Origin: Deltaproteobacteria bacterium
GTDB taxonomy: Bacteria; Desulfobacterota; Syntrophia; Syntrophales; UBA8958
DNA length: 32,890 nt
Direction of reading: 5' to 3'
Assembly (NCBI GenBank): GCA_026388335.1
Contig: JAPLJZ010000014.1
Location: 1 to 32,890 of the forward strand
Under the pieces are notes generated by a model. That model saw nothing but the letters and a program-made list of their open reading frames with translations, ran no database searches and had not been told where the DNA came from. Below are positions 19,830 through 24,716 of this stretch, one piece after another. How positions within the stretch are numbered: the first letter of the stretch is position 1; each line of letters opens with the position of its first letter. The translations under genes and the position numbers were made by a program.

Positions 19830-19879
19830 TCATCTGTTCTTTAAATATTGCTTCAAGTCCCGATAGTAGTTTTCATGAG
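19821..19879 (-). repeat. 59-bp direct repeat, copy 2 (native relE 3' end)
   Basis: The partner of 18516-18574, about 1.3 kb away in the same orientation. Here the encoded residues [15 protein letters not shown] fit the RelE fold's last helix, so this is probably the source copy. Confidence 0.8.
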
Positions 19880-20111
19880 GCCCAATCATAACAAGTTCCA
19901 GATCCCCGTCAACTATCCGATATGCGAGCAAGTACTGCTTAGTTTTCAGTTCGAACTTGTGCACGGATACTCCTCGTAGGTCGCCTTTCTTTTCCTCCCC
20001 GATATTTGGGTCCTCCGCAATTCTCCTTATTTCTCGATCCAATTCGTTTTTTTCTTGTTTCGACATCTTCTTTATTTTTTTCTCAAAGGATCTCGACTGG
20101 TAGATTTTCAT
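19830..20111 (-). CDS. RelE/ParE-superfamily toxin
   Basis: A 93-residue protein with the RelE/ParE fold: basic start MKIYQSRSFEKKIKKMSKQE, then [43 protein letters not shown], where the strand YLLAYRI and the terminal HENYYRDL helix are typical of RelE-type mRNA interferases. It starts six bases after the antitoxin stop. Size and order are normal for a type II toxin-antitoxin cassette. Whether it cuts mRNA on the ribosome (RelE) or poisons gyrase (ParE) cannot be settled; the C-terminal HEN-YRDL pattern favours RelE. The pair lies in the attC-bounded array, where such modules are thought to stabilise cassettes. Confidence 0.85.
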   Translation of the reverse strand: MKIYQSRSFEKKIKKMSKQEKNELDREIRRIAEDPNIGEEKKGDLRGVSVHKFELKTKQYLLAYRIVDGDLELVMIGPHENYYRDLKQYLKNR

Positions 20112-20117
20112 GATCGG

Positions 20118-20336
20118 CTATCCAAAAGTATATTCAGTCTTTTCACTCTGATCCAATTCCTCCAATCCAAGCAAAATCTCCTTAATAAGTGAATAAGGCA
20201 AATCAGGATTCTCTTCGGCACATTTGCCCATACGTGCCCAATGTTCAATCTGGCCGGCTACGGACCTGTGGTCAATCCGGCTGAATTTCTTGGCTTCGCC
20301 GATAAGCTCTTCCGATACCCTTACTGCTGTTGCCAT
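20118..20336 (-). CDS. ParD-like ribbon-helix-helix antitoxin
   Basis: A 72-residue antitoxin. The first strand and helices, ATAVRVSEELIGEAKKFSRI then DHRSVAGQIEHWARMGKCAE, match the ParD-like family in which RSVAGQIEHWARMG is the most conserved part. The acidic C-terminus (LGLEELDQSEKTEYTF) should neutralise the toxin. A purine-rich site (GGGGGGAAT) precedes the ATG, and a good promoter with an inverted repeat lies just upstream, as needed for an autonomous cassette. It is immediately upstream of the RelE-type toxin. Confidence 0.85.
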   Translation of the reverse strand: MATAVRVSEELIGEAKKFSRIDHRSVAGQIEHWARMGKCAEENPDLPYSLIKEILLGLEELDQSEKTEYTFG

Positions 20337-20376
20337 GATAGATTCCCCCCAATTTATTTCCGTTGCATTATGCTAC

Positions 20377-20405
20377 ACTATACGCCTATGAATTGCATTG
20401 TGCAA
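20377..20405 (-). promoter_or_regulatory. Toxin-antitoxin cassette promoter and operator
   Basis: On the reverse strand TTGCAC (20400-20405) and TATAGT (20377-20382) are 17 bases apart. A perfect inverted repeat TTGCA-TTG-TGCAA (20393-20405) overlaps the -35, a suitable site for the RHH antitoxin. Having its own promoter lets the pair be expressed far from any integron promoter. Confidence 0.65.
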
Positions 20406-20434
20406 CAAATAGTTTTCCTTGTATTCTGTAGCGG

Positions 20435-20494
20435 GGGTAACGACAAGCTAAGCGGTCGCCCGCTAGGGCAATCCGCTTGAGCGCCGGGTTATCG
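20435..20494 (-). repeat. attC site 1 (after flavin reductase cassette)
   Basis: Reverse-strand order: R'' CGATAAC, L'' GCTCAAGCGG, an inner stem GCCC-TAGC-GGGC, L' CCGCTTAGCTTG, R' GTTACCC. The L''/L' arms pair apart from the mismatched or bulged base expected of attC extrahelical positions. The flavin reductase TAA stop lies inside R''. R'' resembles the complement of the same cassette's 5' boundary (GTTATCA) at six of seven positions. Confidence 0.75.
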
Positions 20495-21070
20495 TCTTCC
20501 GAAACCTTTATTCTTCAAACTTTTTCCTGTATTCCATGCCTTGCCAAGATTTTCCCCAACAGACCAATAACGATTGTCCGGCATTGTTAATGTGAACGGA
20601 TTAACTTTTTTAATATCCAACATGTTATCCGTCATATATTTTTCTTCTGTAAAAACCTCTTTCGGCTCTCCTATGTAAAGCGTATTAAACGGCAGTTTAA
20701 CTGTGTCAAATAAAGAGCATGACATACAAATCGGACATTCTTTGATAAGCGGAGCTTTGCCTAAATCACCAAAGAAAACATCGAAAAGTTCGGATTTATC
20801 TGTTTTACTGCCGGAAACCAGTCCGCAATAATCAGTTTTCTCAATTAACGAAACATCAGGAATATTGATACTGAATTCTTTGTTTTCCTCAATGCCTTTA
20901 TTTGTGTGATGCGGTCCTAATGCTATCGCAAACAAAGGCGGCTTGAAATTGACTCTTGAAACCCAGCCTACAGCCATGAAATTTACTTTCCCCTCAACAA
21001 CAGAGCCTACTAATACCATAGGCATCGGGTATGAAAAAGCAGCACCACTGTCAATCGTGATTTTTTCCAT
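20489..21070 (-). CDS. Flavin reductase-like FMN-binding protein (flavoredoxin type)
   Basis: A 193-residue protein of the flavin reductase/flavoredoxin family, split beta-barrels that bind FMN and pass electrons from NAD(P)H or other carriers. Features: AFSYPMPMVLVGSVVEGKVN and FMAVGWVSRVNFKPPLFAIA (strand and flavin-binding turn), then LGPHHTNKGIEENKEFSINI and DVSLIEKTDYCGLVSGSKTD, all close to the archaeal and deltaproteobacterial flavoredoxin-like pattern. It is a single-gene cassette between attC sites at 21102-21168 and 20435-20494, with its stop inside the downstream attC. CAAGGAGAG is a good ribosome site before the ATG. The region is AT-rich relative to the chromosome genes. Confidence 0.85.
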   Translation of the reverse strand: MEKITIDSGAAFSYPMPMVLVGSVVEGKVNFMAVGWVSRVNFKPPLFAIALGPHHTNKGIEENKEFSINIPDVSLIEKTDYCGLVSGSKTDKSELFDVFFGDLGKAPLIKECPICMSCSLFDTVKLPFNTLYIGEPKEVFTEEKYMTDNMLDIKKVNPFTLTMPDNRYWSVGENLGKAWNTGKSLKNKGFGRR

Positions 21071-21101
21071 AGTTTTCTCTCCTTGTTATTTGATTACAAA
21101 A

Positions 21102-21168
21102 TGATAACGTTTGAAATCACCGCCCTGCGCGGCTTTTCGCGCAGGTCCGGTGGAATGATGGGTTGGGC
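21102..21168 (-). repeat. attC site 2 (between DUF1697 and flavin reductase)
   Basis: Reverse-strand order: R'' GCCCAAC (a perfect RYYYAAC), L'' ATTCCACCGG, a perfect 8-bp inner stem CCTGCGCG / CGCGCAGG around AAAAGC, L' CGGTGATTTC, R' GTTATCA. Length 67 bp. The arms pair as CACCG/CGGTG with the offset expected from extrahelical bases. This is the usual anatomy of integron attC sites. Confidence 0.85.
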
Positions 21169-21176
21169 GTGGTCAT

Positions 21177-21713
21177 TTACTCTCCCGCCAGTTCTCTGAT
21201 TTTGCAAACTGTTTTCCAATTGCGATCCGTCATCGGAACGCCGAGCAATTTCTCAGTACTTGCCGCGAGCTTGGATCTACCCACCCCTTCAGGCGCATGT
21301 AGATAAAACACACGATCGCTCAGATGAAACCGTTCGCTTTCCTTCCTAAGGCTGTCGAGTTTCTTTAGGTCAGGGTTCTTGGGCGTGGAAGCCAGAAAGC
21401 CAAGATGCAAACTGCTGGGGTCTGCTTCTGCCTCCGGAAATGGGTTTTCCGCCATTGCTCTTTCCATTGCATCAAGCCCGAGAATGAGAACGTAGGGCTC
21501 GAAACCATGGCGTTTCTTGATTTCAGCGGCTAGTCGCTCGGAGAGTTGCGAGAAGTTATTTTCAGCGCTCTGGAATACTGCATTACCGCTTTGGATATAG
21601 GTCTTGATTTTTCGGACACCAATATCCTCCAGAAGGACAACAAGCTCTTTCATCGGCAAGGAATTTTCCCCGCCGACGTTGATGCCTCTGAAAAGTGCAA
21701 TGTAAGTATTCAT
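21177..21713 (-). CDS. DUF1697 family protein
   Basis: A 178-residue DUF1697 protein. The hallmark is the start MNTYIALFRGINVGGENSLP followed by MKELVVLLEDIGVRKIKTYI and QSGNAVFQS; the end ASTEKLLGVPMTDRNWKTV also fits. The family is small, cytosolic and of unknown function, and is widespread in soil and aquatic bacteria. The ATG at 21713 is chosen because the family starts exactly here; the frame is open further upstream only because it runs through an attC site. It is bounded by attC sites on both sides, so it is a single-gene cassette. Confidence 0.88.
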   Translation of the reverse strand: MNTYIALFRGINVGGENSLPMKELVVLLEDIGVRKIKTYIQSGNAVFQSAENNFSQLSERLAAEIKKRHGFEPYVLILGLDAMERAMAENPFPEAEADPSSLHLGFLASTPKNPDLKKLDSLRKESERFHLSDRVFYLHAPEGVGRSKLAASTEKLLGVPMTDRNWKTVCKIRELAGE

Positions 21714-21746
21714 TTGATCACCGATTGATATTGCGCCGCCAGTAAC

Positions 21747-21816
21747 GCTCAACATGAAGCTAACGGGCGCGCGGTTTTTTGCACGTCCGGGTTGAGCGCT
21801 TTGATAATAGTTATGG
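21747..21816 (-). repeat. attC site 3 (upstream of DUF1697)
   Basis: Reverse-strand order: probable R'' CCATAAC (21810-21816), L'' GCTCAACCCGG, a central loop rich in A and CGCG, L' CCCGTTAGC with one base fewer than its partner (extrahelical base), TTCAT spacer, R' GTTGAGC (21747-21753). R' GTTGAGC matches the complement of the DUF1697 cassette's own R'' (GTTGGGC) at six of seven bases, as expected if both came from one circular cassette. The left-hand R'' is less certain. The cassette it once ended is not present; the IS110 element lies there. Confidence 0.7.
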
Positions 21817-21848
21817 CCTTGCTGCCAGCACAATACGTTGTCAGAATT

Positions 21849-21890
21849 AACCAGTAGAATTTGATTTGTTAAAATCAAATTCTACTGGTT
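21849..21890. repeat. Perfect 19-bp inverted repeat at IS110 left side
   Basis: Arms 21849-21867 and 21872-21890 are perfect complements around a GTTA loop, starting AACCAGTAGAA. The hairpin abuts the SD-sequestering repeat of the transposase gene. There is no T-run, so it is a hairpin of the element's left end rather than an ordinary terminator. It marks a plausible left limit of the insertion sequence. Confidence 0.75.
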
Positions 21891-21958
21891 GCCTCCTTTA
21901 ATCGTGAAGAATATAAAGAGTTATCCAAGACTCAACTCTAAACGAAAAAAGGAGGCAA
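21889..21958 (+). promoter_or_regulatory. Transposase promoter and Shine-Dalgarno-sequestering repeat
   Basis: TTGCCTCCTTT (21889-21899) and AAAGGAGGCAA (21948-21958) are perfect complements; the right arm contains the transposase Shine-Dalgarno AAGGAGG just before ATG 21960. A promoter TTGCCT (21889-21894), 17 bases, TATAAA (21912-21917) starts transcription after the left arm. The element's own mRNA therefore has a free ribosome site, whereas a read-through transcript from outside would pair the arms and block translation. Confidence 0.7.
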
Positions 21959-21959
21959 T

Positions 21960-23003
21960 ATGAAATTTTACAATCAGCAACACAAGTATTACTGCGGCAT
22001 TGATCTGCATGCCCGAAAAATGTTCGTCTGTATTCTCGATCAAAAAGGCAAAACAATGGTTCACGAAAACATCAATACCGACTCGGATCTTTTTTTAAAA
22101 CTCATCTCACCCTATCTGGAGAACATCGTCGTGGGGGTTGAATGCGTCTTTTGCTGGTACTGGGTTTCAGATTTGTGCGCCAAGCATCAGATTTCATTTG
22201 TTCTCGGACACGCATTATACATGAAAGCCATTCACGGAGGAAAGACAAAAAATGATAAGATCGACTCCTATAAAATCGCCTTATTGCTTAAAGGCGGTAA
22301 TTTTCCGACAGCATATCCCTATCCTGCCGAGTGGCGGGCTACCAGAGATCTATTAAGACGACGGATGTATCTCATGCGCAGGTGCGGTGAACTGGTTGCG
22401 CATATCCAGAACACCAAGACGCAATATAATCTACCGGGATTTACCAAAAGGCTCGCCCGTAAATACAATCATGACGGCGTGGCCGAGAAATTCGAGAATC
22501 CGGAAGTGCGCAAAAGCGTCGAGGTCGATCTTGCCGCGATTGCATCGCTTAACCAAATCCTCAATCAGCTGGAATGGCATATTGAAAAAACAGCCGAACA
22601 GCATGATTACCACACGCTATACTTGCTTCGGTCGATCCCCGGTGTCGGGCTGATCCTGGCGCTGGTCTTCCTTTACGAAATCCAAGACATCAAACGCTTC
22701 CCTTCCGTTCAGGATTTCTCCTCTTATGCCCGGTTGATTAAACCGGTCAAAACATCAGACGGAAAATGGGCCGGTAAATCAAACGGCAAAATCGGCAACC
22801 ACCATCTGAAATGGGCATGCAATGAGGCGGCTATCCTCATGCTCAGGGAATCCGAAAAAGCCAAACAATATGTGGCGAAGCTCGAACGAAAATACAACAA
22901 GGGCAAAGCCCTGGGTATCTTCACCCACAAAATCGGCAGAGCTGTTTATTTTATTCTCAAAAACAAGGAGGCCTTTAATATGGAAAAATTCTTTAGCCAA
23001 TGA
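21960..23003 (+). CDS. IS110-family transposase (DEDD recombinase)
   Basis: A 347-residue IS110-type transposase. The N-terminal RuvC-like DEDD domain shows D15 (CGIDLHARK), E61 (VGVECVFCWYW), and D99 and D102 (KNDKIDSYKIA). The C-terminal Tnp_20 domain contains the HhH-like LLRSIPGVGLILALVFLYEI and the serine-containing region FSSYARLIKPVKTSDGK, KSNGKIGNHHLKWACNEAA, where this family's catalytic serine lies. The gene is full length with no frameshift, so the enzyme may be active. IS110 elements use a structured non-coding RNA to choose donor and target DNA. AAGGAGG is six bases before the ATG. It interrupts an attC cassette array between the PemK and DUF1697 cassettes. Confidence 0.93.
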   Translation: MKFYNQQHKYYCGIDLHARKMFVCILDQKGKTMVHENINTDSDLFLKLISPYLENIVVGVECVFCWYWVSDLCAKHQISFVLGHALYMKAIHGGKTKNDKIDSYKIALLLKGGNFPTAYPYPAEWRATRDLLRRRMYLMRRCGELVAHIQNTKTQYNLPGFTKRLARKYNHDGVAEKFENPEVRKSVEVDLAAIASLNQILNQLEWHIEKTAEQHDYHTLYLLRSIPGVGLILALVFLYEIQDIKRFPSVQDFSSYARLIKPVKTSDGKWAGKSNGKIGNHHLKWACNEAAILMLRESEKAKQYVAKLERKYNKGKALGIFTHKIGRAVYFILKNKEAFNMEKFFSQ

Positions 23004-23515
23004 TCTTGGGATTAAGGATGCCAGCTTGTTGCCTAACTGAGATTCCATAGGCGGACCTGATTATCTTTATTTACTACGTGCAGCTTGACTGCTAAAAAAG
23101 ATTGGGCCAAATGCCTCTAAGCTCATGGCTTTGATTGGCGGCATCCTTTTTCCCATTTACTCATAAATGATGCAAGACCAGACGACATCCGTGTTCTGCC
23201 CCTTGCCCGAGTGACGACCTAACTGGATGGAGTTTTCCTCCAAGCCGCTTAACTTTGACTGCGCCGGGATAAGGGTACCGAAATATATTCTAGAGCTGTC
23301 GAATGACGGCAAACTGATTGCCAAAGAGCCTTTTGGCTATTCAGTCAATCTCTATAGATGTTTGGTGCAGACGCTTTTAGCGTTCTGACTCTCACGACGG
23401 AAGACGCAAGTCCGAACCATAGGGTCGTTTGTCAAGGCTTCATTAACTTTTTGGACGGATACTTTTTATTGCTCTTTTTCCGATCTATAGGAGAACTACC
23501 GAAGGCCATATAGAG
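23004..23515 (+). ncRNA. Structured non-coding flank; candidate IS110 bridge/seeker RNA region
   Basis: About 510 bases with no gene on either strand. It holds a long-range 9-bp inverted repeat, AAGGATGCC (23014-23022) with GGCATCCTT (23140-23148), followed by a T-run, enclosing a small hairpin GCAG/CTGC (23080-23092). Further on are TGGAG/CTCCA (about 23227-23241), a two-part stem ACTGA + GCCAAA / TTTGGC + TCAGT (23313-23345), and a bulged hairpin CAGACGC / GCGTTCTG (23368-23387). Such density suggests a folded RNA. IS110-family guide RNAs are encoded in the longer non-coding end, which is here. Exact RNA limits and strand are not determined. Confidence 0.4.
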
Positions 23516-23516
23516 G

Positions 23517-23864
23517 TTATGTGCCTTGTATCCAATTCGCCAATCTTTGTTTGATGCGAGATAGACGTTGAGTATCAATTTGGCCTAATTTTCCCAAGAG
23601 AACAGCGCTATTAACTACAGCAAGTCTGCTAATTCTGATAACGCTTGCTAACTTCAAACCAGATTGTTGGAAATCTGAATCAGCGGGAGTGATAACTTCA
23701 TCAAAGTCAGGGATTTCTTGATGGAGTTGTGACGATATCATGCAAATTATCCAATCGTTATATTGGCCAGGTAATCGACGAAGTACGAGGGCAGGACGAA
23801 GCCTTGCTTCTGTTTGATCTGTTTGAGGAAATCTGAAAAGTACAATTTGGGCTTCGGTAATCAT
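23517..23864 (-). CDS. PemK/MazF-like toxin
   Basis: A 115-residue endoribonuclease-type toxin of the PemK/MazF superfamily. Features are the first strand GQIVLF-like (here AQIVLFRFPQTDQTEARLRP), the ALVLRRLPG strand, DWIICMISSQLHQEI, and the C-terminal SVIRISRLAVVNSAVLLGKL followed by the GQIDTQRLSRIKQRL helix. In this branch the toxin follows a DUF2281 antitoxin, as here; the genes overlap by four bases (ATGA). The stop TAA lies within ACATAAC (23516-23522, reverse strand), which is the R'' half of its attC. That half exactly complements GTTATGT, the 5' boundary of the same cassette at 24128-24134. The remainder of this attC is lost or altered at the IS110 side. Confidence 0.82.
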   Translation of the reverse strand: MITEAQIVLFRFPQTDQTEARLRPALVLRRLPGQYNDWIICMISSQLHQEIPDFDEVITPADSDFQQSGLKLASVIRISRLAVVNSAVLLGKLGQIDTQRLSRIKQRLANWIQGT

Positions 23865-24073
23865 GAAAATGATTCCTTAATATCATTGAGCGAATACGGA
23901 GCTTGTTCGTCCTCCATCCCTCGTATCGCAGAAGATAAGGAAAAATCTACCCAATCTTTTATCTCCTGTTTTTCTTCCTTTGAGCGAAGATATTGTACAA
24001 AATCCAGGACTTCTACCTGTTTAGATTCTGACAATGCTTCTACATCTTTAATAATCGTCTCTGCTAAACTCAT
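23861..24073 (-). CDS. DUF2281-type antitoxin
   Basis: A 70-residue protein of the DUF2281 type: MSLAETIIKDVEALSESKQV followed by EVLDFVQYLRSKEEKQEI, the family's helical core (SxxxQxEVLDFVxxL). The acidic C-terminus (GMEDEQAPYSLNDIKESF) probably covers the toxin. ATG 24073 is chosen because GGAGG lies seven bases upstream; the frame extends further but without a ribosome site. It overlaps the PemK-like toxin by four bases. No separate convincing promoter is visible upstream, where an attC site begins about 55 bases away. Confidence 0.8.
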   Translation of the reverse strand: MSLAETIIKDVEALSESKQVEVLDFVQYLRSKEEKQEIKDWVDFSLSSAIRGMEDEQAPYSLNDIKESFS

Positions 24074-24127
24074 AATGATACCTCCATTGGTGTTTTTGAG
24101 TATCATAAAATGTGAAATTTTGCGAGC

Positions 24128-24190
24128 ACATAACGAAAAAACCAGCCGGAGGCGGGCGTAGCCTGCCGATCCGCTGGATTGACTTTATGC
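24128..24190 (-). repeat. attC site 4 (after membrane-protein cassette)
   Basis: Reverse-strand order: R'' GCATAAA, L'' ATCCAGCGG, an inner stem GGCAGGC-TAC-GCCCGCC (one G-T type mismatch), L' CCGGCTGG, R' GTTATGT. The arms pair as CCAGC-GG / CCGGCTGG with an unpaired base. R'' complements TTTATGC, one base from this cassette's own 5' boundary GTTATGC at 24763-24769. Length 63 bp. Confidence 0.8.
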
Positions 24191-24191
24191 T

Positions 24192-24716
24192 TTATTTCTG
24201 GAACCAAAGCGCCAACCCCAGCAGTAAAATGTATGTAACGAGATTAGCCCATGCGCATGGCAGAGCCATGTCCCTAAATTTGACCTTGCGTAAGCGGGCA
24301 ATGACTAACGTTTCACTCGACCACGAAACTGCCCCCAGAACTGTAGCAAATGCAAGCGCAATACATGCATTTCGTAACGTCTCCGAGCCAAACTCGCCCT
24401 TGAACCACCAATAGAATAGGCGCTCTCCGACCAGAGGTATAGTTGCCAGATATAGTACCGCACCTAAAGCGGTTGATATGATGTTTCCAATGAAAGATTG
24501 AAAAAGAGTAGAAAGTACTGAGCCGCCAGCCAATTTACGAATAATGATACCTTCGATTAATATTACGATGGGTAGAAGAAATGCTTGCCCCCAAGGCACT
24601 GCCATATAAGGAATAATCGCATCTGCTCGGGCTTCCAACGGGATGCATAGTGCAATTATACCCAGCCCCACCAGTATTTTAGGATTCTTAATCATCGCCT
24701 CAATCCAATGATGCAT
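24192..24716 (-). CDS. Polytopic membrane protein, cassette-encoded, unknown function
   Basis: A hydrophobic protein of up to 174 residues with about four membrane segments (ILVGLGIIALCIPLE, AFLLPIVILIEGIIIRKL, FIGNIISTALGAVLYLATI, and the C-terminal LVTYILLLGLALWF). I do not recognise a family; it recalls uncharacterised proteins seen around predicted inner-membrane sensors. The first ATG (24716) lies within the R' core of the upstream attC (GTTATGC), so the cassette would have no leader; an in-frame ATG at 24695 is preceded closely by GAGG and may be the real start. The stop lies just before the next attC. It is a single-gene cassette. Confidence 0.7.
   Translation of the reverse strand: MHHWIEAMIKNPKILVGLGIIALCIPLEARADAIIPYMAVPWGQAFLLPIVILIEGIIIRKLAGGSVLSTLFQSFIGNIISTALGAVLYLATIPLVGERLFYWWFKGEFGSETLRNACIALAFATVLGAVSWSSETLVIARLRKVKFRDMALPCAWANLVTYILLLGLALWFQK

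What the first reader, a model, noticed from the sequence alone, without database searches (positions are those of the whole stretch)
21889..21958. IS110 transposase ribosome site is hidden in read-through RNA
An 11-bp perfect inverted repeat pairs the transposase Shine-Dalgarno with a sequence 48 bases upstream that overlaps the element's own -35 box. A native transcript, starting near 21924, lacks the left arm; a transcript entering from outside would contain both. This is the same logic known for IS10 and IS50, and I do not know it as a described feature of IS110 elements.
Basis: partly seen in the sequence, partly recalled or inferred. Interest (0 to 1): 0.7.

Follow-up and report, generated by a model that had tools for sequence, protein, structure and literature searches.

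The report
Hidden ribosome site in IS1111 transposase
A jumping gene of the RNA-guided IS1111 kind carries, in its own left end, a stretch that can fold over and hide the start site of its transposase gene, and many distant relatives keep this pairing although the letters change, so it looks like a real brake on jumping, though nothing has been measured in cells.

Summary
In detail: TTGCCTCCTTT (21889-21899) is the exact complement of AAAGGAGGCAA (21948-21958), which holds the transposase Shine-Dalgarno (SD); 6 of 20,000 shuffles do as well. The element is IS1111-type: subterminal inverted repeats, long downstream noncoding region, insertion in an attC-like site. It spans about 21800-23515, so its left end begins about 90 bases outside the left arm.

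The pairing is not private to this copy. Of 40 related leaders, 33 pair SD and left end better than about 95% of shuffles. Exchanging partners among 33 elements destroys the fit (mean -20.1 against -14.9 kcal/mol; 0 of 100,000 permutations), which is covariation. In simple relatives the arm is the left terminal repeat; in the window it lies further in, on the -35 box of a predicted internal promoter.

The read-through logic is partly supported. It fits the window (opening the ribosome site costs 16.0 against 2.4 kcal/mol), its close kin and six marine relatives; in 25 of 29 other elements a circle-junction transcript would stay closed too. No RNA 5' end is known. Precedents: IS10/IS50 fold-back (recalled) and ISPpu9. 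IS4321 lacks the feature.

The parts
21889..21899 (+). left arm (anti-SD), overlapping the -35 box TTGCCT of the predicted internal promoter
   Evidence: exact complement of 21948-21958
21948..21958 (+). right arm: Shine-Dalgarno region of tnp
21912..21917 (+). predicted -10 box TATAAA, 17 bases after TTGCCT; predicted start about 21924
   Evidence: sequence; TTGCC(T/C)-17 spacing also in L033, L038, L040 (by eye); not listed by the scanner
21960..23003 (+). tnp, 347-aa DEDD transposase (PF01548, PF02371)
21849..21890 (+). perfect 19-bp hairpin next to the left arm; compared with L066, 4 of 4 changed pairs are changed on both sides; absent in L065 and L026
   Evidence: alignment, by eye
21800..21820 (+). 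left terminus: TGATAAT (junction-promoter -10 in relatives) and subterminal repeat TATGGCCTT
   Evidence: ends shared by copies at different sites; position
23501..23515 (+). right terminus with subterminal repeat AAGGCCATA; this copy lacks 12 bases holding TTGACA that L065 has
23004..23500 (+). long downstream noncoding region, place of the seekRNA/bridge RNA in IS1111; TATAGATGTT at 23353 resembles the right end TATAGAGGTT at 23509
   Evidence: location by analogy with PMC11187229 and PMC11208160 (passages)
21747..21797 (+). attC-like inverted repeat directly left of the element; GTTATGT at 23516 on the other side
   Evidence: reading as attC is recalled knowledge

Best explanation
A conserved cis-acting translational brake. 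In this group of IS1111 elements a stretch of the left end is complementary to the SD and start region of the transposase gene. RNA that begins upstream of this arm folds back and hides the ribosome site, so little transposase is made. In simple relatives the arm is the left subterminal repeat with some neighbouring bases, at or across the predicted start of the circle-junction transcript. In the window clade the arm lies further in and coincides with the -35 box of an internal promoter: RNA from that promoter lacks the arm and could be translated, while read-through RNA, and any junction RNA, would be silent. Shown by computation: the complementarity, its conservation and covariation, the predicted energies. 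Inferred: that the fold forms in cells, that it lowers translation, where native RNA starts, and that limiting transposase is what is selected.
For: Exact 11-bp complement, 6 of 20,000 shuffles. Own-partner duplex mean -20.13 against -14.89 (sd 0.56) for permuted partners, 33 elements, 0 of 100,000; one element per deep clade, n=13, 0 of 100,000; window relatives alone, n=25, 0 of 100,000; second clade alone, n=8, 591 of 100,000. 33 of 40 leaders at or below 15 of 300 shuffles. Arms with different letters still pair: GTGCAGGC:GCCTGCAC (L077), CATTGAG:CTCAATG (marine), GGCACCTCC:GGAGGTGCC (L094), GACACCTCC:GGAGGTGTC (L069). The SD flank follows the left end where left and right repeats differ (L077, L081, by eye). 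Opening cost 16.0 from 21742, 18.1 from 21889, 1.5 from 21900, 2.4 from 21924.
Against: No transcript or protein measured. Seven of 40 leaders miss the shuffle threshold: L034, L038, L041, L058, L062, L078, L090. IS4321 shows no pairing: 277 of 300 shuffles as good or better. In 25 of 29 other elements junction RNA would be hidden too, so the outside/native distinction is not general. With 60 bases of host flank the marine values fall to 4.1-12.1. The six neighbouring ORFs that I scanned lie on the minus strand, so their read-through would be antisense to tnp. Related sequences are not independent, so the permutation count is not a true probability.
Confidence: 0.7

Rival explanations
1. General attenuation: the leader hides the SD in all transcripts, native ones too, and keeps transposase low at all times, as in ISPpu9; exclusion of outside RNA is incidental.
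For: Predicted junction transcripts stay closed at 9.5-20.5 kcal/mol in 25 of 29 elements; ISPpu9 precedent, 26-fold rise when the fold is weakened (PMC8450116, passages).
Against: In the window clade (4 elements) and L033 RNA from the internal promoter opens at 2.5-3.5, and in the six marine elements junction RNA at 3.0-6.1.
Confidence: 0.4
2. The SD region is a third DNA copy of the terminal repeat, for example a transposase or guide-RNA binding site that represses tnp; RNA pairing is a by-product.
For: In simple relatives the SD flank resembles the right repeat, which is the inverted copy of the left one.
Against: In the window clade, L069, L094 and L095 the pairing arm is interior and not the terminal repeat; in L077 and L081 the SD flank follows the left end, not the right end (by eye).
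Confidence: 0.1
3. The left arm is conserved only as promoter sequence (-35 box) and the complement is a coincidence.
For: TTGCC(T/C)-17 recurs in L033, L038 and L040 (by eye); L040's best duplex uses the terminal repeat instead.
Against: Does not explain pairing in relatives where the arm is no -35 box; partner permutations 0 of 100,000.
Confidence: 0.07
4. Chance: many SDs find a CCTCC upstream.
For: A perfect complement of 8 or more appears in 149 of 5000 shuffles.
Against: 11 bp in 6 of 20,000; partner permutation 0 of 100,000.
Confidence: 0.03

Closest known systems
IS10 and IS50 fold-back inhibition (recalled; no paper read here)
   Same: An outer part of the element's end, absent from native RNA, pairs with the transposase ribosome site in RNA that enters from outside.
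   Different: Unrelated transposases; here the arm can be the recombination repeat or a -35 box, and in most relatives examined native junction RNA may be hidden as well. No functional test exists.
ISPpu9 of Pseudomonas putida, IS110/IS492 family (PMC8450116; abstract and passages seen)
   Same: DEDD transposase; leader fold that buries the tnp ribosome site.
   Different: There the fold is in a long native 5'-UTR (start codon at +245) and is relieved by an antisense RNA, Asr9; no outside-versus-native logic in the passages seen.
IS1111-attC group (named in PMC11187229 passages and PMC11616780; original papers not held)
   Same: Subterminal repeats, downstream noncoding region, attC targets, junction promoter.
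   Different: SD pairing not mentioned in the passages I saw; the window copy lacks the right-end -35 box.

Membership tests
IS1111 family (IS110/IS1111 superfamily) | DEDD transposase with Transposase_20 domain | tested here: met
   PF01548 and PF02371 above cut-off
IS1111 family (IS110/IS1111 superfamily) | subterminal inverted repeats of 7-17 bp | tested here: met
   TATGGCCTT / AAGGCCATA, 9 bp
IS1111 family (IS110/IS1111 superfamily) | longer noncoding region downstream of tnp | tested here: met
   about 500 bases downstream against about 160 upstream
IS1111 family (IS110/IS1111 superfamily) | junction promoter: -35 in right end, -10 in left end | tested here: not met
   -10 TGATAAT present; TTGACA missing in this copy but TTGAC seen in 17 of 40 relatives' rows, TTGACA in 14; sister L065 has it. 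The other 23 rows did not locate a convincing right end or that box. A lost box in one copy; I do not take it as excluding membership.
IS1111-attC group | insertion into an integron attC site | tested here: inconclusive
   attC-like flank, only match in the window, none in 100 shuffles; no integron integrase above cut-off in the genome
IS10/IS50-type fold-back inhibition (works like) | outer arm complementary to the ribosome site | tested here: met
IS10/IS50-type fold-back inhibition (works like) | native transcript starts inside the arm | tested here: inconclusive
   predicted promoter only
IS10/IS50-type fold-back inhibition (works like) | read-through RNA poorly translated | not testable with these tools
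   needs fusions

The most novel reading that the evidence does not exclude
In IS1111-type, RNA-guided elements the left subterminal repeat does double duty: as DNA it is an end for recombination, as RNA it is an anti-Shine-Dalgarno arm at or just upstream of the start of the element's own transcript, so that transposase is made mainly from correctly started RNA (for many, only after the ends have joined in the circle). The window clade re-created the arrangement with an internal promoter by making the -35 box itself the anti-SD.
Probability: 0.3. Interest if true: 0.75.

Novelty: new variant of a known kind. Interest (0 to 1): 0.56.

Why it matters
IS110/IS1111 elements are the RNA-guided recombinases now studied as programmable tools. 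A conserved, covarying fold that ties a recombination end to translation of the recombinase would be a control layer of the family, and it can be tested with simple reporter fusions. It would also add this superfamily to the few transposon groups known to ignore transcripts that enter from outside.

Tried and rejected
Viral contigs: no relative. Rfam: no match in the window; in five relatives one match, a group II intron beside L035; a permissive search of the L029 left end gave only weak matches far below cut-off, taken as chance. Second copy in the window's genome: none found. Integron integrase: 24 partial matches, none over the cut-off; the 14 control genomes ring as well. A minus-strand promoter candidate spans a hairpin that L065 and L026 lack. 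The DNA-repeat, promoter-only and chance readings are treated as rivals. Literature: the listings show no report of SD pairing in IS1111 elements; led to ISPpu9. Two listed papers were checked by passages (PMC11616780; PMC3196728): nothing on it. The other listed papers were seen as listings only. Two older IS1111 papers most likely to bear on it are not held, so an earlier description cannot be excluded.

Rows dropped before counts: one search lists 45 distinct leaders. Twelve were left out: 8 near-duplicates (L036, L037, L042, L045, L053, L055, L074, L087), scored later at -17.4 to -30.9, and 4 without a recognisable left terminus (L051, L052, L057, L061). Seven clade-2 leaders were added (L089, L090, L091, L093-L096), giving 40. 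L092, L098, L101 had no usable left end there; L097, L099, L100 are partial matches. For the main permutation three near-duplicates of the window (L026, L065, L066) and four decayed elements (L058, L062, L090, L096; my judgement) were set aside; with the decayed ones back, n=37, 0 of 100,000. In one search the internal-promoter RNA was begun at 21918; one search repeats the window from 21924.

Full report
What is there. The two arms are exact complements at the stated places, 48 bases apart; the right one holds the SD of a 347-aa transposase with DEDD_Tnp_IS110 and Transposase_20 domains. An 11-base perfect complement appears in 6 of 20,000 dinucleotide shuffles of the left end.

What the element is. 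Nine loci of Desulfosarcina alkanivorans PL12 and four of Desulfopila sp. IMCC35008 came back (transposases mostly 79% and 75% identical). Their copies at different sites show where such elements begin and end: left terminus TGATAAT or TGATACT followed by TATGGCC, right terminus GGCCATATAGA. In the window these lie at about 21800-21820 and 23501-23515. Subterminal repeats, a long noncoding region downstream of the gene and an attC-like flank (GCTCAAC-N37-GTTGAGC, 21747-21797, the only match in the window, none in 100 shuffles) are the IS1111 layout described in passages of PMC11187229 and PMC11208160. The window's genome has one copy. No integron integrase above cut-off was found, so 'attC' stays 'attC-like'.

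Promoters. In the right end TTGAC is seen in 17 of 40 rows, full TTGACA in 14; in the remaining 23 no convincing right end or box was located. With the left-end GATAAT this gives a spacing of 17-18 when the ends join, by my count: the junction promoter known for the family. The window copy lacks TTGACA: 12 bases present in its sister L065 are missing. It has instead TTGCCT-17-TATAAA inside the left end, and TTGCC(T/C) with a 17-base spacer recurs in L033, L038 and L040 (by eye). The left arm of the reported repeat is this -35 box.

Conservation. For 40 related leaders I took the left end and the 22 bases before the start plus the start codon and computed the best duplex. Own partners average -20.13 kcal/mol against -14.89 (sd 0.56) for permuted partners (33 elements, 0 of 100,000). 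One element per deep clade gives 0 of 100,000 (n=13), window relatives alone 0 of 100,000 (n=25), the second clade alone 591 of 100,000 (n=8). Element by element 33 of 40 lie at or below 15 of 300 shuffles; the misses are L034, L038, L041, L058, L062, L078 and L090. L041 has a substitution in the arm; its near-duplicates L042 and L055 reach -17.4. The letters differ between clades while pairing stays: GTGCAGGC:GCCTGCAC, CATTGAG:CTCAATG, GGCACCTCC:GGAGGTGCC, GACACCTCC:GGAGGTGTC. By record titles and taxonomy lines the sources include Desulfobacterota-type genomes, Alteromonadales and Vibrio plasmids, Candidatus Manganitrophus (Nitrospirota), and drafts labelled Planctomycetota and Bacteroidota. 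The named member IS4321 does not show it: 277 of 300 shuffles as good or better. Related sequences are not independent, so these counts are strong but not exact probabilities.

RNA or DNA? In simple relatives the arm is the left subterminal repeat, so the SD also resembles the right repeat. Two facts favour RNA pairing: in the window clade, L069, L094 and L095 the arm is interior; and in L077 and L081 the SD flank follows the left end where left and right differ (by eye).

Does it separate outside from native RNA? In the window, opening the ribosome site costs 16.0 kcal/mol for RNA from 21742, 15.9 from 21815 (junction RNA), 18.1 from 21889, 1.5 from 21900 and 2.4 from 21924. The three near relatives give 11.8-16.0 against 2.5-3.5, and L033 10.9 against 2.5 (internal RNA begun just after the -10 box). 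In the six marine elements L081-L086 the full left end costs 9.0-15.3, junction RNA taken to start at base 14 costs 3.0-6.1, and RNA with 60 bases of host flank 4.1-12.1, so the contrast is clear in five and small in L081. In the other 29 elements junction RNA stays at 9.5-20.5 in 25; L024, L041, L049 and L062 are lower. All start sites are assumed.

Further caution. The six neighbouring ORFs that I scanned (19830-24716; DUF1697, PemK/MazF-like, ParE-like, flavin-reductase-like, a DUF2281-like below cut-off, one without match) lie on the minus strand, so read-through from them would be antisense to tnp. Other plus-strand ORFs exist in the window and were not assessed.

Precedents. ISPpu9, assigned to IS110/IS492, has a native leader that buries its ribosome site; weakening the fold raised a reporter 26-fold (PMC8450116, abstract and passages). 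IS10 and IS50 fold-back inhibition is recalled. The searches showed no report for IS1111 elements; two possible papers are not held.

Side finding. In L029 and its sister copies, L038, L040 and L095 the place of the window's hairpin is taken by a hairpin with variable stem and constant loop CTCCGACGAGC...CCCATTCTC. The motif occurs in 25 of 395 genomes of the phylum; the reversed control shows 0 in the rows listed. Of the 20 loci fetched for it (L110-L129), one shows an IS110-type gene in the stretch examined, and several stretches are short. Rfam gave nothing for it in L029, L038 and L040, and a text search for CTCCGACGAGC gave five unrelated papers by title.

Noticed in passing
L029 about 1374-1403 and sister copies, L038, L040, L095, L110-L129: Hairpin with variable, complementary stem and constant loop CTCCGACGAGC-N4-14-CCCATTCTC; 25 of 395 genomes, several copies each, in the left end of some IS1111 elements and in other contexts, often with a TTGACA downstream. 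Unknown to Rfam in the loci searched; possibly a new structured element.
   Followed up: partly
21849-21890: Perfect 19-bp hairpin inside the left end; 4 of 4 changed pairs against L066 are changed on both sides; absent in L065 and L026. Role unknown; template switching could also homogenise the arms.
   Followed up: partly
23490-23505: This copy lacks 12 bases with TTGACA that its sister L065 carries, so its circle-junction promoter would have no -35 box.
   Followed up: partly
23353 and 23509: TATAGATGTT in the downstream noncoding region resembles the right terminus TATAGAGGTT: a likely guide segment of the seekRNA/bridge RNA.
   Followed up: no
L035 1217-1333, minus strand: Group II intron (RF01999) beside a Desulfopila copy of the element.
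   Followed up: no
L070 and L089, between left arm and SD: Clade-2 leaders hold an inner hairpin enclosed by the anti-SD/SD helix (by eye).
   Followed up: no
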